Assembly (NCBI GenBank): GCA_958510875.1
Contig: OY294067.1
Location: forward strand, 249,875,736-249,939,735
Direction: 5' to 3'
Length of the DNA stretch: 64,000 nucleotides
DNA from: Endomychus coccineus
Taxonomy: Eukaryota; Arthropoda; Insecta; Coleoptera; Endomychidae
The position numbers and the translations under genes are program-made. How positions within the stretch are numbered: the stretch's first letter is position 1; each line of letters opens with the position of its first letter. A model generated the notes under the pieces. The model was not told the DNA's origin, searched no databases, and saw nothing but the letters and a program-made list of their open reading frames with translations. Shown here one piece after another: positions 10,483 through 31,400 of the stretch.

Positions 10483-13400
10483 ATGGATCTGCCTGATCAT
10501 TATTTAGAATTAACCAAGAATCCTATAAGATTTGAGGCTGGTAATCAATTAACAAACGTGTTCTTCGATGATTCAAATAAAGAAGTAGGAATCATGATTC
10601 AAATATCAAGTACCAATTGATTCTAATAAATTTTTATTTTCAGGTGTTTGCTGTTAGGTCTGGGGGAGTAATGGGTGTTGTGGTAAAAGGATTACGAGAA
10701 AATGATCAACCGTTAAATTTTCGTATGGAAGATCAAGGACCAGTTCTTTCGATAAAATTCTCCCATGACCATAATATCTTGGCAGTTCATCGTTCAACCT
10801 CTTCAATTGAGTTTATAAATTTCAATGGTACTTCAAAAGATGCAGAATATTCTCAAACATGTAAAAAAAATTGCAAAATTTTGGGGTTCGTGTGGTCATT
10901 TGAGAATGAAGTGGCTTTTGTCACCGATCATGGAATTGAATTATATAAAGTAATTCCAGGGAAGAAGTCTTTGAAACTTTTGAAAGCAAGTTCCATCACA
11001 GTTCAATGGTTTGTTTGGTGCTCGTTAAATAAAATTGCACTATTGGCATCTGCCCATGGATCTCAGTTACAACCTGTTTTGTTTAAGCCAGGTTCTATGG
11101 GGAAATTGCCCAAAGTTGAAAGTAAGTACACTTTTCATACAAGTATTTTTATTATTCTGGGTCAATTCAATCATTTCTTCTTTGATCACTATTGACAGTC
11201 ATAAGTTGTAAAGAAATTATAGTAGTGCTGGGGGCTGTGGCTCATTAAAAGTAGTGAGACAATTAAATTGGAGTTAATGGTTAGACAATATCCTATTATT
11301 GCATCAAATAAATATTTCCTGTGATGTGAGAATTTGAATATTCATTTTTATATTATATGGGCAATTCCATTTTCAAGGAGCCCAGGTCAGGGGGGTGTCA
11401 GCTCATGGCCCGGCTTCTGGTTTTTTTGATTCTACTACTAAAATGATGGCTTCCTGCCAAATTTCAGCTCAAATGGTAAGAACAAAAAAAAAGGCGCCTA
11501 TTTTTCATTTTTCTGTCATTTTTTGTTATTAATTTTTGAAACATCGTCTTGAGAGCCGTTCGCGCCAGTTTGAGTCTAAAATTTTTTTTGAAAATCCATA
11601 GGAAATCGGAAATTTCCCGTAGAATTTGAATTTTTTATTAGTTTGGGCCCAGAGGCCATATTTTTTTTGTGAAATCAAAAAAACGATTTTTCGTCTTTTT
11701 ACGTGTTTTTCGAAGCCGCACTTTTTAAAACGTTCTCGTGAAAAAATATCAAGAAAAATTCAATCAGTACCATTTTTTCTTCAAATGTTCTTTGAATATT
11801 GGCTGTTTTTTTCTAAAAACCTCTCGAAAACCCAAAAAATGGTAGATTTGGGTATAACAAAAATTGATATATAAGTTTATACTTACGTATATATTATATA
11901 CCTGGTACCGAGTATATGTGCTTGTCACCTTTTCAAGTGCACTTTTTTTAATTTATTGTATTCTTAATGAATAATAGATTTAATAAATTTTGTATAACTG
12001 GGACTTGAAATAAAATACAATATACATATATATTTTATTATGATGACTGACAAAATTAATATCAAGTTTATCAGCAATGATACGACGCGTTGTTTAGTTA
12101 AGAAGACGAAGTTATATAATATGTCTAGAAACATATATATTTTTTCTCTTTTGTTTTATAATTGACAAACGAGTCCAAGCTGGTCAACATTAAACTATGT
12201 TCTGTTTCTAGGTATTCCATGTAAAATGGCATTAGAACGGGATGTAACTTTGGCAACCTTATATGATGTTCCTTCAATATTGATTTTAAGGCATCAAAGT
12301 GGGCCACAAACAGCTGAAGTTCATATACATACCTTAACTGGACCAGGACAAGCACCTGTGAAGACTCATGTATTGAAGTTAGGATTATCTGGGAGGTTTG
12401 CAATTAACATTGTAGATGACTTAATATTGGTTCACCATCAGGTATCTTAAGAATTTTCAAGTATTGGTTATTAATTTTAATTTAGTTTGACGAGTATTAC
12501 AACCTTAGAGAATGGTATATAATAGAGATGTTGTGATGACGCTCACTTTGGGAGAGTTGCAGACACACTTGTGTTTTGGTTCATGAGTAGGGGTTCGGAC
12601 ACTTGGGGCGGCCAGACAGAGAGCCTTATCAGATGTAGGCAACCAGTAGCGCATGCGCGGTAGCTGGGTAGATGGTTAGGGTGTGGTCGTCTCTGACCTT
12701 CTGCTGACCTCTAGGTGTTACCGGGTAGACGGCTAGGGCTTGATCGTTCAAGGTAGACAGCAAGCAATATGTGAGGTTAGGGAGAACTTCAATGTAAAGC
12801 AGCATCAAAATATTTTTTTTCTACACACGGGAATCGAACCCGAGAAATGAAATCCAAAGCCGGTTCCTTAACCGCTCAGCTATGGAGGAATTGAGAACAA
12901 GCGATTTTAATGTTGTAGATATAACCGCAGGGTATCCGGTCTGAGTGCGAGTATATTGCAGTCTATATGATGCAGGTAATTGTTTTACATAACGTTAGTC
13001 ATGCAGGTATGTCATGAAGCGAGGTATGGAATGTGAGGCTTCATAGTCCTAGGGTTTTGAAATAGTGTTGTTTGTACATGTCGTCGGTCACGTGATTTTT
13101 GAAAGAGACCGGGCATTCATCGGAGGTATCATGGGAGGGCTGCTGTTCCTTGAATGCATAGATGGAATGTTATATATAGTATAGAAATGATATCTTCTGC
13201 ATCTCTCTCAAACGCGATGTTTATAAGGAAATTACTTTCAAAAACGTTTATTCAAGCTGTCTGTACCTTACTTGATTGCTATATTACAAAATGCGATTTC
13301 AATCATCTTAAACATATATGGAAATTATTTTTTAGTATACAAAATGGAGTTGGGGGACTTCAATGGGGTATGGAATGTGGGGTTATACAGATTGTTTATG

Positions 13401-16400
13401 TATGACGTTAGTCATGTGAATTTGAATGAAGCTGGCGCGATCTCCAACGAGACAGGTGTGTATGTGAGGTTATACAGAGTGTGCAGGTATAATGATGTCT
13501 ATCACGCAGGTCTTCAGCGAGGTATCTACCTTGCAGGATTCTTCAACGAAATGTGGGGTTGTTTGTACATGCCGTTAGTCGCAGGGTTTTGTATGAGTTA
13601 TAACATCTAACATGCGATAGTTTACAAAAAATGCTGCTTCTCATAATAGCGATATTATGAAGCGTTTGCAGAAATAACTATTGAATCATCTAAGGACTTT
13701 TTGCTTGATTAGAACTAGCGAGTACAAAATTCGTTATAATATTATAAGTATGCATCATTAGCTTACTTGTGCGATAAGGTTGTGCTAAATCATGTCCAAC
13801 AGCATTGTATTCAACTTGGAATTATCGTAATGATGCGCACGATCCTTCAATGTTAAAGTAGTTTTATAAGTTATCCGAAAGTAATATGAATATATATAAA
13901 ATGTTTTTCCAAAATTAGTTCCGAAGTAAACATAATTCGCTGTAATATTCATTCATGTATGTTACATAAATTATCCGATATAAATCAAATAAGTTTATGT
14001 CGCAGGTTGAACAATATTCACTATCATATTTTGCGGTAGAGCTACAGCTGGTTCGAGAGAGATAAGAAAGATACGCCGATCACCTTCAAACGCGATGAGA
14101 ATACTTTATTTTAAATCACACATATAGTATGTATATATTCGAATCATATTGATTGTAAATCGCATAATATGACCCGAAATCTAGCTGCTGCTGGGTGTAG
14201 CCCAATACCTATACAGAATCTAGACGAAGCGGTGTTACGCATCACGATGATTATTCGAACTGTCTGTACAGCTCGATTGCTATATAACAAAATACATTTT
14301 TAATCATCTTAAACATATAGATGTGCTAATATAATTTTTTCAGTATACAAAAATATACTAATAAAACATTTTTCATCGACACACATTTCTTCATAGGATA
14401 GTTAGCTTTTTATAAAATTCAATCAATTTCAATGGGAAACATATATGCGAGGGAGTTTTATAGAGATCGAACTCATTTCCCCAACCACCCCGAGAGGTAG
14501 AACTATGATGAGGAATAGATGTGGATATTGATCATATGAATATCTTCATAAGCGCTAATCTATATGACATGCTTCATAAAAGTCTGAATATTGAGTAGAG
14601 CTATAGTATCTTTCTTCATAAGCGATCATTATCAACATTCAGACACTTGTTTAGCACGTGATTCAACAGCCTGGCATCATCGTTCACGAACTATGATGGG
14701 CTGATGAGGAATAAAATACCAATAATAATTATATAAATATCTCCATTAGCAATCTGTACTATTTTCCTCCACCAGCACGACTTTTACAAACTCCATACGT
14801 TCGCGTAAAAGATTATAATGATAAACACATTTTTGTTCACGGGTTTACATAATCATATGAATATCTTCATAAGCGCTAATCTATATGACATTCAAACACA
14901 TGCTTCATAAAAGTCTGAACATTGAGTAGAGCTATAGTATCTTCATAAGCGATCTTTATCAACATTCAGACACTTGTTTAGCACGTGATTCAACAGCCTG
15001 GCATCATCGTTCACGAACTATGATGGTTCGATGAGGACTCAGACATTGAACAGATGAATCTTTGAGGTTAAATATCTGCTGTAGAAATTACCCCACTTTT
15101 ATTACCTTTTTTATTTGAGAATATCGATATTTCCCATGTAACTAACCTAAAGCTATTTTGTATGCAACATTGTTATCATTTGCGAGCCTACGAGGGCCTG
15201 TGTGTGTTGGTCGGGGCTAATTGAATATGTTTGACTATTATTACCTGTAGAGACTCATTTGAGATTCTTCAAGTTTGAGATTGATAACCCACATGAAGAA
15301 AGAAGATTCAACGAATTGATATCAATGAATATTCGTTATTCTGAATGTGACAACTTTATCAGCTTCAACACTCGAGATAAGAGAGAATATTTACCGCAAA
15401 CTGTCTTATAACCACTAGGTACTACATATTATAATAATTGAAAAGATAACATAATAATCTGAATCACTTTTATATTTATTAATTAGATGGTTGCATAAAT
15501 TTTTGTTTCTAGACCTAAAGCGATATTTAAAATTTAGATTACAATCCTGATGGGTTGATCCAAGGGACTGTACTTTACCAAACGGCTCGTTCATTATTGT
15601 GATGTCTTGCGGGAAAGTGAGAGAAATAAAATACCAAAAATAATAATAATAACATTTATTTAGAAAAATACATTTAGAATTAAAATAATAACATTATGAT
15701 TCATGGCTCTTCACACTAAACTCCGAACTGATCCTGTAATTGGAGAATACTCCATTATACGATCGTTAATGATGATGCAATAAGCCCTGGTGTTTTTGGG
15801 GAAATTCAGGAAACTTTCCATCTCTAGTTTGACGTCAACTGTTGATGACTTTATAGCATCGTTTTGTTTTGAACAGTCAATCACAAAAATTGCTCTATTC
15901 TTGAATGTTATATAATCCAACATGGGTTCGCTTATTATTTTATTTGAAAATGATTTCTGGAAATCATAGTACATCTGGTATGCTTCCACGTATTGCTGGT
16001 CGGTGAAATTCAATTTCATTGCTTCATATGGATAACACTCTGAATTCAAGTATAATTTTACATTTAGCAAGTTTATATTATCGAAATATGCACTGTGCTT
16101 AACAGGATTATTTTTTCGATCAGTTTGGAAAGCTAAAATCACATATCTGGGACGTTCCAAATTCATTGAAGTTTTAACAGCCCAAATGTCACGAGTGCTC
16201 TCCTTCATCAACGGATTTTCATGCAGATCCCAGCTGCGAAATGGAATCAAAATAGGCTTCTCAGCACTCAAATTCTCCAACATTTGAAATTTAACCTGAT
16301 CACTTGGAAACACATGTCGCACTTTTAATGCTATCGTCTTCACATTTATTTTAGCCCTCTTCGTACCTGTGCTATTGGTATAGCAATCGTTATCGGTTCG

Positions 16401-19400
16401 AGACCTTATCAAGCGCAGCTTATGTTTTCCACTCAAGACTTTGTTATAGTCAATGAATAGGCCTAGTAGAAAATTCAACGGTATCCATAAATTGATTTTA
16501 TTATTGTAGACTGAACTCAATGCATCCTTAAATGACCATCCAGAAATAGCTAGAGGTATAGATTCATGTTTGGCATATGTTAGATAAGCTCTGATGGTGC
16601 TGACAATACCAGGATCACGTACTTTGTCTATCTCTTTTCCATTCAATTCATAACTAATATATTCGAAGAGAAACGCTCCGAAATTATTCGTTAGTTTACA
16701 TTCACCATCACCACTTGCTTCTGGCTGGAATTCTGCCTCGATGAATAAAGCAGACGATGCCAAATCTACCAACACATCTTGTTGATTGATTAATATCTCA
16801 ATTTCATCGCTGTTGCCAAAAGATGTTGTGTGTGGATAGTAGGTATGAGTTTCTTCCCGGATGATGTCTTCAATGAAGTTTGGCTCGTTGAATATTTGAA
16901 GTTTTTCCGACATTGTAACCAAGGGACTTCAAAAAATGTATATTTTCCAATGATAGTGATGCAGAAGCAACCTTCTCCTTCTTCAATGACAGTGATGCAG
17001 AAGCAACCTTCTCCCTCGAGCTCGTTGTAGATAATGACTGATGACCACTATGGAGATGTCTTTTATTGCTAAAATCCAAACCCATGTTCTCAAGTGATGG
17101 CTACTGCAACCTTCTCAGTTGAATTCCTTTCATATAATGAGTGGTGGTGAGTATTGGATTATTATTTATTGTTGTGAGGTATAATCCCTAACGATCTTTT
17201 TCAATTCCAATCGTATAATAATTTCTTCTCCACGAAAATTTACCGGTTTCCAATTCTGATCTAGAATATTCAGTGTGATGTTATCGAAGGACGTCTTGCT
17301 GATAACCGGTAGATAAATAAGATTCTTCGGCTCTATATCAATGGAAAACCCAGGTGGTACAAGAGGTGAGAACTCATATATCGTATGAGCTATCTTATTG
17401 TTATAATATGCTCCCGCGGTTAAGTTACACTCTACGCGTATAGTTTGAACTTTGATTATGTTTATAGGTCGATCAGATACGTGTAGTTCACGAGATGTCA
17501 ATTTCTTTTTGCTGAATCCCAACAGTTCGCTTATACTATCTTTAGGAATAAAATTCACTTGAAAATCACTCTTCAGCTCTGTGTGTAGAGTGTTGTTGTT
17601 AGATTTTATTGATAATTTCCGGTCACGCTCTTCTTGCTTCACTCCTATCCCACAAACTGTACTTTGTATGAAATCTTCGATGTCTGTCAACTCGTAGGAC
17701 CCCGTAGGTATAGTAACTACTTTTTCCTCACCCTTCACATCTTCATAATAAAATTTATTAAAACCTTCTTCAATGTTCGGAATGCTATTGTACGTATGCA
17801 AGCCAACAAGTGCGATAGAATAATATGAATGAGGATCTAGTTCTATAGGTGGGTGGAAATCTACAGATAAACGAGAGCTCTTACCCGTGATAGTGAACGT
17901 CTGAGACATGATTGATGAAAACTTCATCAACAATCTATTTATATACTAATAAATGTTAGTCGACCAATTCCAAATATAACTGGCTACAATTATAAGTGTT
18001 ATATTGCATGAAATATCGTGTAGACGGCAAGCTTTATCGAATGAATTGATACCCTGAATCTCCTCAACCGTTCTTCTAATTTTGCCCCTGGTATTGATTT
18101 GAAGTTCAAACGGGGGCTTGTTTATAAGCGTATTGAGAACAACTTCTCCCACGCACGCTTCCATACAGACTGATGAGAATTCAAGATTGCACCGCTATTT
18201 AACGAGGGGTGGGAGGAAGACCAAAGATCTCAAAATAATTTTTTTTTATTAATTATCTCAATACAAAAGACTTAAGTATAATCTTAACAATATATGTTTC
18301 AAATATCTCAATCTTGACTCTTGATTCATCGTCCTAGTCGTATTGCATATTCCTACCCCTTCCACCTATATTGAAGTCCTTTTATGTATGTTCGACGCTG
18401 GTAAAAGTTCTTTCTTCTGTGCTCATGAAGCTCATGCACAACTTGTTCTCTACTCATCTTATCAATGTGGAAATCTAGTGTAGAATTAATTTTTTGGGTA
18501 TATTCACAGGATTTGGAGATATACGTTTCACAGAGGCCTGCTTTGATGTTATGGATGATGAAGGTCTCTTCTTAGAAGGTTCCACAGATGTCATCCGTCG
18601 TTCTAACGCCTCCACTTTACTAGTAATGTCATTTAGACGCATGTTCATACTGTTAAATGTGTTATTGATCTCTTCCAATTCATTTCTGTTTTCCCTCACA
18701 CTATCACTGATTGTTTTATACTCTGATTTTATATAGATTCCCATTTCATTATATTTATTCTGAATGTCCATCAGATGTTTATCAATGTTGAGAATAACCT
18801 TGTCATTCGTTAAGTTATGTTCATCCAGATCCTTGTTGATATCTTTGATCAAATTATCAACCCTAACATTGAAGGTATCTTTAAGACTGGTTTCCGTTTT
18901 CAGATTCAGTTTGTGTGTTAATTTATCAACATACACTTTATTTGCAACATCTCCATCATCATTCGGTGATTTTACGTTACACAATCTACGATTTTCCATA
19001 TCATAACTTCCATCGCTCGTTAGGAATAATCCTTGTCCGTGAACTTGTTTGAAATTATTATTAAATACATTTGTATCATATATCCACATGGAAGAGGAGG
19101 CTCTGCCAAACTTATCCATTGAAACCATCTTTATAACTGAGATGAATTTGTCTTACACCTGGTTTTTGTTCAATTACCCCTGCCTCTATCAATTCTTCTA
19201 TTATAGAGATTATCTCATTGTGATGATTATGGTTACCTGCATGCGAGGATGCAACAAGAAGTCTCAGTCTATCCACAATTTCGTTAACGTCATCCCAATA
19301 AACATATTCGATAGGTTTCTCGTTATATTCAAGCATATCATTTTTGATATATGCACTTCCAGTGTATGTTTTGGCTCTGGGTCTTTTCATGGAATTAATC

Positions 19401-22400
19401 AAAGGTTTCAGTACATTTTTGTATTTTACAATGTTTCTTATTCGATCAGCTGGATCGTTATTACGCCTATGGGCACTAGTCATTTCCATCATTTGACTGT
19501 AATTTTTCCCATCTTCCACAGTGTAAGTATCAGGTAGAACATCTCTATAAAATATCAAATTATACAGTCCTGTGGTACCCTTGAACGGAGTACCCTTGAT
19601 AGTTATATTACTCTCACTATCAATTTCTATAGGTTGATTACCCATGAACCATTTGTCTAAAGTTGAATTATATTGCAAACCCATTTTATCATCATATCTC
19701 TTAACATCATCATCCAATAGGAATCCTTCCAAGTAATAACGTGCTAATGTGGGGTATTGTTGCAGAAACTCCTCTGTAGCCGCTGCATTATCTTTCTTAT
19801 GTTTTCTGAATTCTTCACGAATCTGATCGATAGTAGGTTCGGGTGTAAACACATCCTCCTCAGTATCTTGGGGGTTATATACGAATTCTTCACCTTCAGT
19901 TACAATATTTGGGATTGGTATGTTCTCCATTTGTGTTGCTGTAGAAACAATACTTTTAGGTTTAACCAACGAATTTTGTTTGATTATTTCAGCATTTCTC
20001 GCAATTTCCTCCAGAGGTTTAGATACATTCCTGAACATATTATCTAGAATCTCATCATTTTCAGCTTTACCCAATTTCACAGCCATATATTTTTTCCTCA
20101 CAACGTTTGCTAACTCCCAAATTTTTTTCTTCAATTGTTGTTTTTTCTTTAGCACACCCACGTCCATGCTGAGCGGCTTGTCTATTTCAAATGAAAGTAT
20201 ATATACATGTTAGATGTATATATAACTATCAAAACCTTTGCGATAACGTCCTTTGTTCATATCACAGTCTTTGTTTATCATAAGGAATCCATATTTATCT
20301 TTCCAACATACGCTACATATCTCTTTGAATTTTTCGAGTGACATGTCGGTACTTACATGATCGGTGAATATATGTTTCAAATTGAGCTCATCCTGTTTGA
20401 AAATAATCAAGCAATTGGCATTGTCGCGCAATCCATGTTTTGGACATTTAGCAAAAGACTGGCAAAGATAGAAACTATCAATTGAGTTGTGTCTCCCTCT
20501 TGAAAAATAAGCACGAATTTTCTGCTGTTTCTCAAACATCACGTCATCGAATATTATTATCGAATTAGGCCTCGCTTCTGTGGGGTCTATGACCTCATCA
20601 CTTTCGGTACAAGGAAAATATCCAAGCCCCTCAATTTTCTTCAATGTCTCCTTTAGTAACTGGTATTTTGGTTGGTGTAAAGACTTTGAATATATGTACA
20701 CGTTTTCAAATTTCAGGCCGTTAGCATCCAACAATAGAGATAACATCACATTTGTTTTCCCACAATTACTTGGACCACAGATTATTGTTCGTAGAGTATT
20801 AGGCAGCAAAGAGCTGTGACGTTGTGGTTGTTCAACATTCTCATTGCTTGACCCTAAGTTCATAATACTCAACGAGTCTTTTTGCTTAACAATCTTCATC
20901 ATGCCTGAAGGCGAATCGAAATCATACTGGAACATATGTTAATAAGCATTTGTTTATATACTAGATGATGATGTTATATTGTGTATGTCTGATCACGCGG
21001 TTAGGTACTTCTACGCTTCTCTCAAAATCAGGTATCAAATACATGTTAAATAGGTATGAATGTTGAAACACGTGTCTGGATATTGGAACACGTGTCTGAA
21101 TGCTGAAACACGTGTCTGAATGTTGAAACACGTGTCTGAAACACGTGTCTGAAAGCTGAAACACGTGTCTGAATGTTGAAACACGTGTCTGAAACACGTG
21201 TCTGAAAGCCGAAACACGTGTCTGAAAGCTGAAACACGTGTCTGAATGTTGAAACACGTGTCTGAAACACGTGTCTGAAAGCTGAAACACGTGTCTGAAA
21301 GCTGAAACACGTGTCTGAAAGCTGAAACACGTGTCTGAATGTTGAAACACGTGTCTGAAACACGTGTCTGAAAGCCGAAACACGTGTCTGAAAGCTGAAA
21401 CACGTGTCTGAATGTTGAAACACGTGTCTGAAACACGTGTCTGAAAGCTGAAACACGTGTCTGAAAGCTGAAACACGTGTCTGAATGTTGAAACACGTGT
21501 CTGAAACACGTGTCTGAAAGCCGAAACACGTGTCTGAATGTTGAAACACGTGTCTGAAACACGTGTCTGAAAGCTGAAACACGTGTCTGAAAGCTGAAAC
21601 ACGTGTCTGAATGTTGAAACACGTGTCTGAAACACGTGTCTGAAAGCCGAAACACGTGTCTGAATGTTGAAACACGTGTCTGAAACACGTGTCTGAAAGC
21701 TGAAACACGTGTCTGAAAGCTGAAACACGTGTCTGAATGTTGAAACACGTGTCTGAAACACGTGTCTGAATGTTGAAACACGTGTCTGAATGTTAAAGCA
21801 TGTGTTGAATCATGCGAAAAAAAATGTGTATGAATGTAATACAATCATTATGATTATTCACATTTTATTCCTCATTAGCCCATCATAGTTCGTGAACGAT
21901 GATGACGTCATCATCGTTCGTAAACTATGGTCGCCGGGTTGAATCAGTTACTGTCATTGGCTTGAAGCAGTGACGTCATCATCGTTCGTAAACTATGATC
22001 GCCGGATCTTCAATTCAATAAAACACCACTTACTCGTCAAATCCTTATGTATTCCGATACACATAAAGCTGATGTTCTCACCCACCCCAATTTGTATGCA
22101 TCATATTGATTTTCCCTACATCAGCGGTAAATATTCTCTCTTATCTCGAGTGTTGAAGCTGATAAAGTTGTCACATTCAGAATAACGAATATTCATTGAT
22201 ATCAATTCGTTGAATCTTCTTTCTTCATGTGGGTTATCAATCTCAAACTTGAAGAATCTCAAATGAGTCTCTACAGGTAATAATAGTCAAACATATTCAA
22301 TTAGCCCCGACCAACACACACAGGCCCTCGTAGGCTCGCAAATGATAACAATGTTGCATACAAAATAGCTTTAGGTTAGTTACATGGGAAATATCGATAT

Positions 22401-25400
22401 TCTCAAATAAAAAAGGTAATAAAAGTGGGGTAATTTCTACAGCAGATATTTAACCTCAAAGATTCATCTGTTCAATGTTTGAGTCCTCATCGAACCATCA
22501 TAGTTCGTGAACGATGATGTCAGCTTGTTGAATCACATGCTAAACAAGTGTCTGAATGTTGATAATGATCGCTTATGAAAATTCTATAGCTCTACTCAAT
22601 ATTCAGACTTTTATGAAGCACGTGTTTGAATGTCGTATAGATTAGCGCTTATGAAGATATTCATATGATTATTATCCACATCTATTCCTCATCATAGTTC
22701 TACCTCTTGGGTGGTTGGGGAAATGAGTTCGATCTCTATAAAACTCCCTCGCATATATGTTTCCCATTGAAATTGATTGAATTTTATAAAAACTAACTAT
22801 CCTATGAAGAAATGTGTGTCGATGAAAAATGTTTTATTAGTATATTTTTGTATACTGAAAAAATTATATTAGCACATCTATATGTTTAAGATGATTAAAA
22901 ATGTATTTTGTTATATAGCAATCGAGCTGTACAGACAGTTCGAATAATCATCGTGATGCGTAACACCGCTTCGTCTAGATTCTGTATAGGTATTGGGCTA
23001 CACCCAGCAGCAGCTAGATTTCGGGTCATATTATGCGATTTACAATCAATATGATTCGAATATATACATACTATATGTGTGATTTAAAATAAAGTATTCT
23101 CATCGCGTTTGAAGGTGATCGGCGTATCTTTCTTATCTCTCTCGAACCAGCTGTAGCTCTACCGCAAAATATGATAGTGAATATTGTTCAACCTGCGACA
23201 TAAACTTATTTGATTTATATCGGATAATTTATGTAACATACATGAATGAATATTACAGCGAATTATGTTTACTTCGGAACTAATTTTGGAAAAACATTTT
23301 ATATATATTCATATTACTTTCGGATAACTTATAAAACTACTTTAACATTGAAGGATCGTGCGCATCATTACGATAATTCCAAGTTGAATACAATGCTGTT
23401 GGACATGATTTAGCACAACCTTATCGCACAAGTAAGCTAATGATGCATACTTATAATATTATAACGAATTTTGTACTCGCTAGTTCTAATCAAGCAAAAA
23501 GTCCTTAGATGATTCAATAGTTATTTCTGCAAACGCTTCATAATATCGCTATTATGAGAAGCAGCATTTTTTGTAAACTATCGCATGTTAGATGTTATGG
23601 CCCTTATTGAAGATTTGTGGAGCAGCCGATGCATCGCGACCGATATCATTATAACTCAGACAAAACTCTGCGACTAACGGCATGTACAAACAACCCCACA
23701 TTTCATTGAAGGCTCCTGCAAGGTAGATACCTCGCTGAAGACCTGTGTGATAGACATCATTATACCTGCACACTCTGTATAACCTCACATACACACCTGT
23801 CTCGTTGGAGATCACGTCAGCTTCATTCAAATTCACATGACTAATGTCATACATAAACAACCCCACATTCCATACCCCATTGAAGTCTCCCAATTCCATT
23901 TTGTATACTAAAAATAATTTCCATATATGTTTAAGATGATTGAAATCGCCTTTTGTAATATAGCAATCAAGTAACGTATAGACGGCTTGAATAAACGTTT
24001 TTTTTTTTTTTTGAAAGTAATTTCCTTATAAACATCGCGTTTGAGGAATGTAGAAGATATCATTTCTATACTATATAACATTCCATCTATGCATTCAAGG
24101 AACAGCAGCCCTCCCATGATACCTCCGATGAATGCCCGGTCTCTTTCAAAAATCACGTGACTGACGACATGTACAAACAACACTATTTCAAAACCCTAGG
24201 ACTATGAAGCCGCGTGGAGAAACAAATGTCGGGGTCCGAGCCTGGTAAATGCCTGGGTCCGAGCCTGGTAAATATTAACATTATCATATAAATATTTGCG
24301 ACTTCTAACGCGCTGCCGTCTTGCGATATGTTTCATAAACAGATGTGATTTATCCATTTAACCGCGATAGAACGATAAATTGAATTATTTCATTTTAATA
24401 ATAATTTAACGCATTGGCTAGGTGTTTCAAACAGATATGATTTATTTAACCGCAATTGTTACTATAGAATGACGAGTTGAATTATTTTAAGAATATAGTT
24501 TATTTTCGTGAATATTCACAGACTCTCAACTGTCTCGTATCTTTTGTCAGAGAATATGTTTACAGCTGAAATTCTCCCTAACCTCACATTGTGTATGCCC
24601 CAGCCCTACAAGCTGATTCGTGAGACCTTGTATATGCCCCAACCCTACAAGCTGATTCGTGAGACCTTGTATACAGGTTGATTACCACAAAACCCTAGCA
24701 GAAGGTCACCACACCCTAGAGGTCAGAGACGACCACACCCTAGAGGTCACACCATCTACCCAACTGTACCGCGCATGCGCTACTGGTTGCCTACATCTGA
24801 TAAGGCTCTCTGTCTGGCCGCCCCAAGTGTCCGAACCCCTACTTTCATGATTTAATTCCATGATATTATAAACAAAACATGCAATACAAATATTACCTCC
24901 TGGAGAAAGCTTTATAATAATCTAATGGTTTTACTTGGAAACTAGTCAGAAAAGATATAGGAACATACAGAATACATACAGTTATTGATCTACCAGGCCA
25001 AACAGGTCATTTGTTTTACTTCAAATAGCGTAGGTTCGAAACTTACAGACTGCCTTATAATTTTATATTTTATTATCATTCTTTTTAGGTTACAATTACT
25101 TTCTTTATATATTACTTTCAAGCGGCAATTCTGGGTTAATAATGTTACATAGAAATGTACAATTAGTTGTCTAATATCAAGCTGATTGACATTTGACAAC
25201 ACAACATGATCGATTGTCGCATGACGCTTTCAAAACCTCAAAAAGCTGATAAACCTCTTTATAAGTGTATTTGTTAAATAACCGGTACCAGTTTACAGTA
25301 CATAACAAGTAGTCTATTTGAGTTTTTGTCTTTGTAATTAATTGATTTTCTTTGCTTGTACCTATACTTTAAATGTACATATTACCTTCAAGCGGCATGT

Positions 25401-28400: not shown

Positions 28401-31400
28401 CAATTTAATTTAAAATGTAAGTACCTAATTGCACTTATGTTACACAATCCTTTGGAACTCTGAAAAATGTGATCTTCAATTTGAGCTTTTTGGTATTGCA
28501 GTCTTTCACCACATAAGTAGAACGACCCATAATGAAACTGGATGAAAATAACTCGAAGAACATAGTTACAGTTTAAGAAGAATACATCATATTCAATAAA
28601 TAAAACACTTAGAAATACAATTTTCATGAATATCAATAACCTGAAATTTAATTCAATTCACTATCACAACACAAACTGATACTGAACTGACACTATTTAA
28701 CTCCAAAAACAGCTGTAAACAAAACACGTAAAACTCAAATGATCTTGAAATATCGTAAGATTGTAAAATATAAAGCTGAAAACTTGTTTACTTTAATGTA
28801 GTTCGGAATTTCGGAAGTGTTCGAATGTTATAGTATATAAATTATAGTATACAACATTCTGAACGCCTTCTCTTTGATGGCGATCCTGTTGCCAATATTC
28901 TTTTTACCGATGAGGATAGTTTCACACGAAATGGAATTTTTATTTTATACAATACGCATGTGTGCTGATGAAAATTCGGCTGCTATTATGGAATCTAGAC
29001 ATCGAGAAGCGATTTTCATTGAACATTTGGATGGGTATTTTGGGCGAACCGGTTCTAGGTCCGGTTGTTTTACCAAACAGATTAACAGGAGCTGCATACC
29101 TAAACTTTTGCAGATTACACTGTATGATATTTCAGACGACTTTCTTTTGAACCAAAGTGTACAAACCTGGTTCCAGCACGATGGATTGCCGTTAGAGAGC
29201 ATTTACACGGAACTTTTAGACGAAGATGGGTTAGAAGGGGCGGACATGAACATGCCCTGCAAGAACGCCCGATTTAAACATCGATTTGTCTTGGTGATAT
29301 ATGAAAACTTTATTGCACACTACTCCTATTTACGATCTCGAGGAGCTGCGGCAAGGAATGGATCAAGGATGCCACCAAATCCGAACCAATGTGGGTGGTT
29401 TTGAGAGTTCCTTGCGGTGTGGTGGCAGCCATGATAAGGGAGGGCACTTTGAACATCCCATTTGACTTTTTTTGTCTTTGTTGTTTGTTCATAAATTACA
29501 TTGTTTGCACATAATGAAAATTGGTTTAAAAGCAAAATGTCCATTTGCGGACTTTTGTGTATATTTTATTTTATACTATATTAGCTACTGCTATTACTAC
29601 CAACGACTTTTGACTGTATCTGCATTTCATTTTCAGCTACTCTTAGAAAATATTAAACAGAAACAACCAGAACTGGATAAAATCCAAGAATCATTCAATC
29701 ATATAAATAAAGTATATAGAGAATGTTTGGAATTCGAGTTGAAAATGCAAACAGCATCTCCTGCAGGTGATCCAGTATTTGAAACACCTGCAATCACACC
29801 AAGAGTTCATTTAGATCAAATACTATTTTATAATGAAATATTTTTGAAATTGGATTTGGATTCAGAAGTTAATAAACTAGAATGGACTCTCATTTCTTAC
29901 CTGACTTCATTATTTGAGTGTAACATTCCCGCACAACATGAAATCATTGAACTAATTATCACTACACTGGTAAGTTGAAGAAAATATGCTATTTGAGAAT
30001 TCAATTTTGTCGTGCAAGTTCCCTCAGTTTTGACCTTAGTAAGATACTAGAATTGATAGAACACTACGAATTAAAAATATAGATATTTATTTTTCAAGAG
30101 ATAAGCGGTCACTTTATGCTTACTAAGCCTAAATAAGCTAAATATTAGGAATCTAAAATTGAAGAAAATTTTAAACGTTCAAATAACCAAGCTTAAATTT
30201 ACATGAACTGCAAAGTTTAACTGCAGAAATTGTTTCTTTACACAGTGACATTTTCAAAATGGGTTATAATTATAAGTTTATAACCAGTTTTGAAAATATC
30301 TGTGTGATGAAACAATTGTCAGCAATTAAATTTGTTTTGTCACTATTCTACATATTTAAAAAAAAAATGAATTTACATCAAGTAAAACTTAGATTCCAAA
30401 GAGATGATATTGCAAGAAGAGACGTATAATATAAAATGGCACTAAACTTGACGTGAAAGTTAAGCTAGCACATGCTTCAGGATGCATATAATATAAAATT
30501 CCAATCACTTCACAGATGTCAATACACAAAAATTAATAACACAAAGTAGACAAGTAAATTAAACAGACTATATGTAACTATGTAACATTATAACAAATAC
30601 AGTAGCCTACATTTTTAAGACTACTGGTGCTCATATCTAGCGTTCAGAGACAAAAAAGCTAAATTTAAGTATGAGGCATTCCACATGAAATTAGCACTCG
30701 TTCCCTGGTCACCCTCGGGGATCGCCCTGAAAGTTGTTCCTACTTTTGTACATTGACAAATATGACGATTTCCGAAATTTCTGATCTTAAGTGTCGATAT
30801 TGCGCCGAGGAGAACATAAGTAAAAAATAAAATTCGTCTCATTATCGTAAAATATTCGAAAATTAGCCTAAAAATTTTTTTGAAAGTAGGTACATAATCG
30901 ATCGGAAATTTTCCGTAAAATACGATGCTGCAGTCTGATTAGGGATATCTTGCAAAGAAAATCCGGAAAATGAGAAAAAGTTTTTTTTGAAAATTCTTGT
31001 CTCAGAAAACCTATATTTTAATTTTTTCTAACCTGGCTAAAACTCTCGAAAAATGTGTCTACTTTAAGGCGAAAATGATCCGGTAGTGACTTTAGTCCAG
31101 TTTCATCAAAATTTTCACTGTTTTCCAGAATTTTTCCGATTTTTTGACGATTTTTCTTTAAATAAAATCCTATTTTATTGCCTACAATGTTACCAAACGA
31201 CCCAAGGAAGAAATTCTAAGCAGTTTTCCTTAATTCTTAGACAATTTTACGTAAAAAACTGTCAAACTCGCAATTGGTTGTAGGTTTGATCTTGAAGTGT
31301 CCAAGTTAAGGAAACGAAATTTTTTTTCTTTGCTGAATGAATAATAAAAGTAAGACAAATAACCTCGTAATTCTAGTAGACTTCAGGGAAAATTACAATT

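What the first reader, a model, noticed from the sequence alone, without database searches (positions are those of the whole stretch)
12580..24849. A virion-module-only Polinton-like element, cleanly inserted but without polymerase or integrase
Seen directly: perfect 6-bp TTCATG duplications, AG...CT termini, 2.8-kb inverted repeats and a one-strand block of packaging ATPase, DUF8207-like, fibre-like, PLA2-like, minor capsid and major capsid genes. Known: Polintons make 6-bp duplications through a retroviral-type integrase and replicate with protein-primed DNA polymerase B. Neither gene, nor the usual cysteine protease, is between the duplications. Inference: the insertion was done in trans. 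It could be one segment of a multipartite virus, a satellite that rides on a helper, or a snap-back deletion derivative in which the polymerase end was replaced by an inverted copy of the other end. Five of six genes still open full length, which argues for recent arrival or repeated mobilisation.
Basis: partly seen in the sequence, partly recalled or inferred. Interest (0 to 1): 0.9.

Follow-up and report, generated by a model that had tools for sequence, protein, structure and literature searches.

The report
Capsid-only half of a split Polinton
A virus-like mobile element in a large, probably beetle, genome carries only shell-building genes, has nevertheless spread to at least a hundred places in nearly identical form, and shares its end sequences with separate elements that carry only a DNA polymerase, so a virus-transposon appears to live on as two separate parts.

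Summary
In detail: 12586-24843 is a 12,258-bp insertion with perfect TTCATG duplications, AG...CT tips, about 2.8-kb inverted arms and a one-strand virion block, without polymerase or full integrase. It is not one broken copy: the same 906-Mb genome has at least 103 loci with 99-100% identical capsid protein. None is within 18 kb of a listed polymerase, and 1 of 103 is within 18 kb of a listed integrase (lists capped). The predicted partner exists: six separate 17-20-kb elements carry polymerase, no capsid genes and no integrase found, 6 of 6 with perfect 6-bp duplications; two share their first 30 tip bases with a virion copy. Among the first 100 of 925 tip places, 42 pairs form two main length classes, 11-13 kb (virion where checked) and 16-19 kb (mostly polymerase). 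Integrase, where examined, sits in other Polinton lineages. A 31-residue integrase remnant at 18362-18454, also in 5 of 5 other copies sampled, shows that integrase was lost before the spread. Best reading: a split Polinton moved in trans. Virion formation and mutual dependence are untested.

The parts
12580..12585 (.). left target-site duplication TTCATG
   Evidence: equals 24844-24849
24844..24849 (.). right target-site duplication TTCATG
12586..24843 (.). whole inserted element, 12,258 bp
   Evidence: TSD and tips
12586..12662 (+). left tip, identical to right tip; first 62 bp identical to a tip 6.5 kb from a polymerase hit on C3
24767..24843 (-). right tip
12586..15397 (+). left inverted arm (mosaic identity; 321-bp extra piece at 14528-14848)
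22124..24843 (-). right inverted arm
12816..12938 (.). subterminal block in the left arm only; 95% identical over 123 bp to both ends of three polymerase-plus-metalloproteinase elements
15711..16922 (-). major capsid protein, double jelly roll, 400-403 aa
   Evidence: PF21738 1.2e-89; 466 relatives
17166..17933 (-). penton (minor capsid) protein, 247-255 aa
17946..18164 (-). short frame with a PLA2-like HD motif (label recalled, no Pfam hit)
18362..18454 (-). 31-residue remnant of the N-terminal part of a Polinton integrase, directly downstream of the fibre-like gene
   Evidence: 18 of 31 identical, 38.1 bits against at most 28.1 in 500 shuffled queries; in 5 of 5 other copies sampled
18475..19128 (-). 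fibre-like coiled-coil protein, 217 aa
   Evidence: residues 1-75 are 41% identical to a type-3 Polinton protein
19112..20167 (-). DUF8207 protein, 351 aa
   Evidence: BFVD match to a bracovirus DUF8207 protein 9.7e-13
20210..20935 (-). packaging ATPase, 241 aa
   Evidence: Pox_A32 5.3e-6; 55.5% to type-3 Polinton ATPase
21054..21812 (.). tandem array of 20/13-bp units, 40 CACGTG in 746 bp, upstream of the gene block

Best explanation
The element is the virion part of a split (at least two-part) Polinton. Shown: virion-only elements of about 11-13 kb and polymerase-only elements of about 16-20 kb are separately inserted across one genome, share terminal sequence, make 6-bp duplications, and carry, where examined, neither full integrase nor each other's genes. 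Shown: the virion-only form descends from an integrase-bearing Polinton, because an integrase remnant persists after the fibre-like gene, where a relative keeps the full gene. Inferred: the polymerase part replicates both molecules by protein priming at the shared AGTAG tips; the virion part packages both; and integrase comes in trans from other Polintons of the genome (type 1 or type 3) or from a part not yet found.
For: Capsid copies: 103 of 103 scored loci 99-100% identical, 99 without a stop. Co-location within 18 kb among listed loci: polB1 with INT1 13 of 13 (control); capsid with polB1 or polB2 0 of 103; capsid with INT2 0 of 103; capsid with INT1 1 of 103; polB2 with INT1 or INT2 0 of 63. 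Of seven polB2 loci fetched, six gave elements with both tips, 6 of 6 with perfect TSD, and no capsid, penton, fibre, DUF8207, ATPase or integrase by tblastn. Five virion elements with both tips read, 3 of 5 with perfect TSD. Shared tips: virion copy C1:223601160 has the same first 30 bases as polymerase palindrome C5:69627345 and the left tip of palindrome C5:82049446; the window tip is 62 of 62 identical to a tip near polymerase hit C3:93418252 and 61 of 62 to one near C5:88551908. Shared subtip word: 457 + 468 places, control 0 and 0. Of the first 100 places, 42 pairs: 25 of 11.0-13.0 kb (8 hold a listed capsid; 8 of 8 others sampled are virion elements; 9 not sampled), 9 of 15.7-19.4 kb (6 hold a listed polB2), none with a listed integrase. 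Integrase remnant in the window and in 5 of 5 other copies.
Against: No integrase with these tips was found, so the full set of parts is not in hand. Only 100 of 925 tip places were listed (16 of these stayed unpaired), and the capsid, polymerase and integrase lists are capped (103 of 4492, 76 of 1488 and 135 of 4341 candidates scored), so a complete relative with these tips could be missed. Of the three unassigned 15.7-19.4-kb pairs, all sampled in the middle, two show virion sequence and one neither. The three polymerase-plus-metalloproteinase elements share in the tip region only AGTAGG, CTTGGGGC and a subterminal block, with no tip match at E 1e-4. Two of five virion copies lack a perfect TSD. 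The exactly matching tips on C3 and C5 lie 6-7 kb from polymerase hits, but their second tips were not found. No expression, particle or packaging evidence.
Confidence: 0.68

Rival explanations
1. Two independent satellites: the virion-only and polymerase-only elements are each parasites of other, integrase-bearing Polintons in the genome and do not depend on each other; common tips reflect selection by, or capture from, the same machinery.
For: Integrase-bearing Polintons are present: INT1 43 loci and INT2 89 loci listed. Type 1 is complete. The one INT2 element examined (type 3) carries relatives of the window's ATPase, DUF8207, fibre-like, penton and capsid proteins. A tip-like AGTAGG sequence lies between integrase and ATPase in 6 of 6 type-1 copies looked at.
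Against: Type-1 true tips differ (AGTAGTAAGAGAGG with TSD GCCATG), whereas the two split forms share up to 30 of 30 bases in elements with both tips read. The two gene sets are complementary. The ends of the type-3 element were not found, so its tips are unknown.
Confidence: 0.22
2. A snap-back or internal-deletion derivative of one complete Polinton with these tips, still present in the genome but not seen here.
For: The integrase remnant shows a deletion in the ancestry; arms of 2.8 kb exceed the 46-1,447 bp reported for intact vertebrate Mavericks; palindromic polymerase elements exist.
Confidence: 0.08
3. A provirus deleted after insertion at this one site, or an assembly artefact.
For: None beyond the missing genes.
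Against: Further elements of like length and gene positions at other sites: 4 with both tips read and 8 of 8 sampled tip pairs (each checked at two points, not throughout).
Confidence: 0.02

Closest known systems
Polinton/Maverick (Polintoviricetes; insect adintoviruses)
   Same: 6-bp TSD, AG...CT tips, inverted arms, DJR capsid, penton, packaging ATPase; every named species among the 120 listed capsid relatives is a beetle
   Different: no protein-primed polymerase, no integrase (31-residue remnant only), no recognisable protease; arms about twice the maximum and seven times the mean reported for intact vertebrate Mavericks
'Meldviruses' of Buck et al. 2024 (PMC11071296; section 16 and passages seen)
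   Different: no partner molecule with shared tips and no integrated two-part system is described in the passages seen
Multi-segment bidna-like viruses (Vesanto virus; PMC8363768 and PMC11071296, passages seen)
   Same: polB-bearing invertebrate viruses with genes on several segments
   Different: parvovirus-type capsid, ssDNA; that they are not inserted by an integrase is recalled
Type-3 Polinton of the same genome (L046-L048, one INT2 locus)
   Same: relatives of ATPase, DUF8207, fibre-like, penton and capsid at 40-55% identity
   Different: has integrase and PLA2 and a large frame of about 1,259 aa that was not recognised as polymerase B; other strand arrangement; its ends were not found

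Membership tests
Polinton/Maverick | 6-bp target-site duplication | tested here: met
   TTCATG; perfect in 3 of 5 virion copies with both tips read
Polinton/Maverick | terminal inverted repeats beginning AG | tested here: met
Polinton/Maverick | double jelly-roll capsid, penton and packaging ATPase | tested here: met
Polinton/Maverick | protein-primed DNA polymerase B | tested here: not met
   polymerase of type-1 and polymerase-only elements is detected by the same Pfam method
Polinton/Maverick | retroviral-type integrase | tested here: not met
   remnant of 31 residues only; control integrases detected
Polinton/Maverick | Ulp1-type cysteine protease | tested here: inconclusive
   no hit, but none was recognised either in the frames scanned of types 1 and 3
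Multipartite virus | complementary genes on separate molecules with common termini | tested here: met
   (integrase not accounted for)
Multipartite virus | the molecules are packaged and transmitted as parts of one infection | not testable with these tools
   no particle or read data
Snap-back derivative | one arm is a single-event inverted copy of the other | tested here: inconclusive
   arms are a mosaic of identical, 3-5% diverged and unrelated blocks

The most novel reading that the evidence does not exclude
A working multipartite Polinton: capsid genes and polymerase gene live on separate proviruses that share tips, multiply to many copies each, and are inserted by an integrase borrowed from other Polintons in the same nucleus; that is, a double-stranded DNA virus lineage that became multipartite by loss of integrase and separation of modules.
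Probability: 0.5. Interest if true: 0.95.

Novelty: new variant of a known kind. Interest (0 to 1): 0.85.

Why it matters
Polintons are discussed as ancestors of many eukaryotic DNA viruses, and whether they are viruses or transposons is debated (recalled, and in the passages). Capsid genes kept open in a recent burst of a virion-only element are hard to explain unless the capsid is still used, so the case bears on that debate. It also offers a genomic record of how a one-piece DNA virus can turn into separate, complementary parts, with both parts, possible integrase donors and an integrase remnant preserved in one genome.

Tried and rejected
Relatives of the capsid, penton and DUF8207 in viral contigs: nothing for capsid and DUF8207, one distant penton locus L001 (23% identity), with an ATPase; its 10 scanned frames (of 17 listed) gave no polymerase B or rve. 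Capsid in phage records and prokaryote genome contigs: none. Capsid against PDB sequences: nothing meaningful. DUF8207 model against PDB: nothing at E 0.001. PHROGs: only tail-fibre, coiled-coil-type or unknown matches for the fibre-like protein, none below 0.001 for the others. Regular expressions for polymerase and integrase motifs (patterns recalled) in the non-gene parts 12586-15710 and 20936-24843: no match. A tRNA-like look of 12816-12892 by eye: neither ARAGORN nor Rfam calls it. Rfam hits on the tandem array are far below the gathering score. The frame of 88-103 aa in both arms (13344-13610 and 23588-23899): no Pfam hit; not claimed as a gene. The idea that type 1 is itself split at its inner tip-like sequence was rejected: ATPase-side sequence follows in 5 of 5 further copies. 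One polB2 locus fetched (L024/L025, C3:92.75 Mb) was left out of the TSD count because only its right tip was found; its polymerase lies in two frames. Literature: the searches list no paper, by the titles and abstract starts shown, on a Polinton split over two elements; the library lacks most subscription journals, and Starrett et al. 2021 was not held.
Full report
What is in the window. The element lies at 12586-24843, between perfect TTCATG duplications. Exons of RMC1 lie at 10581-11192 (RMC1_N) and 29466-29975 (RMC1_C), both on the plus strand, so the element most likely sits in an intron of RMC1, antisense to it (inference). The window is G000:C1:249875736-249939735 of a 906-Mb assembly in 129 contigs.

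Arms. The arms are a mosaic: in the alignable part, 31 mismatches in 2020 columns with an 896-column identical run, which 0 of 100,000 shuffles reached. Simple decay since insertion would not leave such blocks; gene conversion between arms, or exchange with other elements, would. Other elements support exchange: parts of the window's arms recur in polymerase elements, for example 24212-24588 at 87% and 15063-15300 at 84% in L024/L025, and 12816-12938 at 95% in both ends of three others. One virion copy on C2 has a right arm more like the window's left arm (99.5%) than its right (92.9%) (L030).

Not a single broken copy. The capsid protein has 103 matches among 103 scored loci (of 4492 first-look candidates, so a lower bound), all full length at 99-100% identity; 99 are without a stop and 4 have one. 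Virion elements with both tips read: window, 12,258 bp, TTCATG; C3:131938224-131951113, 12,890 bp, AATATC; C2:156394058-156407058, 13,001 bp, TATAGG; C1:223601160-223613296, 12,137 bp, no TSD (TAAAGT/GTTGTA); C1:223684180-223696668, 12,489 bp, imperfect (CATATC/CTCATC). So 3 of 5 have a perfect TSD. The insides of the other copies were sampled, not read through.

The polymerase-only partner. The Pfam model DNA_pol_B_2 gives 201 matches, not all listed. By matched profile range and frame length I grouped the listed rows by hand into 13 'polB1' and 63 'polB2' loci. Seven polB2 loci were fetched. In six, both tips could be read, and every one has a perfect 6-bp duplication: C5:69627345-69647206 TCCCAC; C5:82049446-82066922 AGTATG; C1:302428549-302445653 TACAAG; C3:75688689-75706570 GACAAC; C5:68710654-68728457 GTTTTA; C2:110978948-110996773 GATATC. 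The seventh (C3:92.75 Mb) showed only its right tip and has a polymerase in two frames. The six are 17.1-19.9 kb long. tblastn with the window's capsid, penton, fibre, DUF8207 and ATPase and with INT1 and INT2 finds nothing in the stretches fetched (500 bp of the first were not fetched). The two on C5 at 69.6 and 82.0 Mb are near-perfect palindromes with inverted polymerase genes. The last three are copies of one element that also carries a matrix metalloproteinase with hemopexin repeats.

Shared tips. Over 77 bp the window tip is 87% identical to the palindromes' tips, and over 65 bp 92-94% to those at C1:302 Mb. The virion copy at C1:223601160 has the same first 30 bases as the palindrome at C5:69627345 and the left tip of the one at C5:82049446, whose right tip differs at one base. 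The 30-base window tip, up to 2 mismatches, occurs 8 times: two each at the window, C3:131.9 Mb and C1:223.7 Mb, and singly at C3:93411734 and C5:88558597. The last two lie 6-7 kb from polB2 hits; 62 of 62 and 61 of 62 bases match the window tip, but their second tips were not found. The metalloproteinase elements differ more at the tip: AGTAGG, CTTGGGGC and a subterminal block only, and no tip match at E 1e-4.

Census of tips. The conserved subtip word, up to 1 mismatch, occurs 457 + 468 times, and its backward control 0 + 0 times. Only the first 100 places (all on C1) were listed. They give 42 head-to-head pairs (16 places unpaired): 25 of 11.0-13.0 kb, one of 14.4, nine of 15.7-19.4, three under 0.6 kb and four over 20 kb, the last probably mispairings. 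Eight of the 25 hold a listed capsid. Eight of the other 17 were sampled at two points each, and all 8 are virion elements collinear with the window at those points; nine were not sampled. Six of the nine long pairs hold a listed polB2. Of the three others, sampled in the middle, two show virion sequence (virion copies with extra sequence, or mispairings) and one shows neither. No pair holds a listed integrase.

Where integrase is. A query with the integrase of a complete Polinton (L014) finds, after four second fragments are set aside, 43 loci at 47% identity or more (INT1) and 89 at 38-43% (INT2, of more than one frame length) (135 of 4341 candidates scored). Within 18 kb: polB1 with INT1 13 of 13, which shows that the test can see linkage; polB2 with INT1 or INT2 0 of 63; capsid with INT2 0 of 103; capsid with INT1 1 of 103 (C1:179212476, 14.4 kb away); capsid with polB1 or polB2 0 of 103. 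The type-1 element L014/L015 is complete: polymerase 1764 aa, integrase, ATPase, PLA2, capsid 444 aa, with tips AGTAGTAAGAGAGG and duplication GCCATG (read). One of the 89 INT2 loci was examined (L046-L048, type 3): it has relatives of the window's ATPase (55.5%), DUF8207 (40%), fibre (41% over 75 residues), penton (44%) and capsid (41%), a PLA2 gene, integrase, and a large frame of about 1,259 aa, seen in two pieces, with an endonuclease VII-like domain (1e-5) but no recognised polymerase B. Its ends were not found, so whether it is complete, and what its tips are, is open.

Origin. In that type-3 element the integrase follows the fibre-like gene. At the same place in the window, 18362-18454, 31 residues match the integrase start (18 identical; 38.1 bits against a maximum of 28.1 in 500 shuffled queries). 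The remnant is present in 5 of 5 other virion copies sampled, which are 98.5-100% identical to the window there. So integrase was lost before these copies spread, and the truncated form then multiplied, most simply with integrase from elsewhere. The strand arrangement and the 40-55% identities show that the window element is not a simple deletion of the type-3 element found here.

Mechanism. Shown by sequence: separate virion-only and polymerase-only proviruses with common tip sequence and 6-bp duplications, and many near-identical copies of the former. Inferred from established knowledge of Polintons: 6-bp duplication by a retroviral-type integrase, and protein-primed replication with jump-back at short end repeats. 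For vertebrate Mavericks the latter is stated in PMC8097293, of which I saw passages, where ends are (AGT)2 or (AG)3, inverted repeats are 46-1,447 bp and intact elements 12,723-24,620 bp. The AGTAG start fits. Inferred without direct evidence: mutual dependence, co-packaging, and the integrase source. Long arms may keep the virion-only molecule near a minimum packaging length (speculation).

Comparison with what is known. Buck et al. 2024 (PMC11071296; section 16 and passages seen) report genomes that unite adenovirus-class virion proteins with no recognisable PolB and integrase, and up to twelve segments in bidna-like viruses. I found no description of a Polinton split over two elements (searches: listings only, apart from passages of PMC11071296, PMC11071308, PMC8363768, PMC12567637 and PMC8097293). 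As a family member the element fails two defining features of Polintons (polymerase, integrase), so I file it as Polinton-derived, not as a complete Polinton.

Noticed in passing
L017:5880-7451 (-), L019, L020 and L024 (G000 C3, C5, C2): Polymerase-only elements carry a matrix metalloproteinase gene with hemopexin repeats (PF00413 3.4e-31), apparently a captured host gene; copies at three sites are 99.4-100% identical in that protein, and a worn relative is in L024.
   Followed up: partly
L010/L011 and L012/L013 with L026/L027: Near-perfect palindromic proviruses, 19.9 and 17.5 kb, with two inverted 1,270-aa polymerase genes (L010 also has a third, partial 702-aa polymerase frame), each flanked by a perfect 6-bp duplication.
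   Followed up: partly
window 21054-21812: Tandem array of 20/13-bp units with 40 CACGTG palindromes in 746 bp (3 in the 8,478 bp of the element left of it, 3 in the 39,151 bp right of the element); its unit resembles a motif of the inner arms at 14632-14668 and 14959-14995.
   Followed up: partly
window 14675, 15002, 21881, 22496: Four copies of a 24-bp near-palindrome CATCATCGTTCACGAACTATGATG (or its reverse complement), in the inner arms and beside the array; no other match of the pattern in the window.
   Followed up: no
L014:9799-9878, also L041-L045: A sequence like the split elements' tip lies between integrase and ATPase in 6 of 6 type-1 Polintons looked at; its role is unexplained.
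   Followed up: partly
L046:2-2014 with L047:3238-5001: The large frame of the type-3 element, about 1,259 aa in two pieces, has an endonuclease VII-like stretch but no recognised polymerase B; its function is open.
   Followed up: no
G000 C1:57726099, 94346391, 156391181: Head-to-head tips only 0.4-0.5 kb apart: very short elements or fused ends with the same tips.
   Followed up: no
window 13344-13610 (+) and 23588-23899 (-): A frame of 88-103 aa open in both arms; its two length differences (9 and 54 bp) are multiples of three.
   Followed up: partly
window outside the element: Frames matching phage-type integrase (3.1e-7), BED zinc finger and hAT dimerisation domains, and host genes Vps8 and DcpS.
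   Followed up: no
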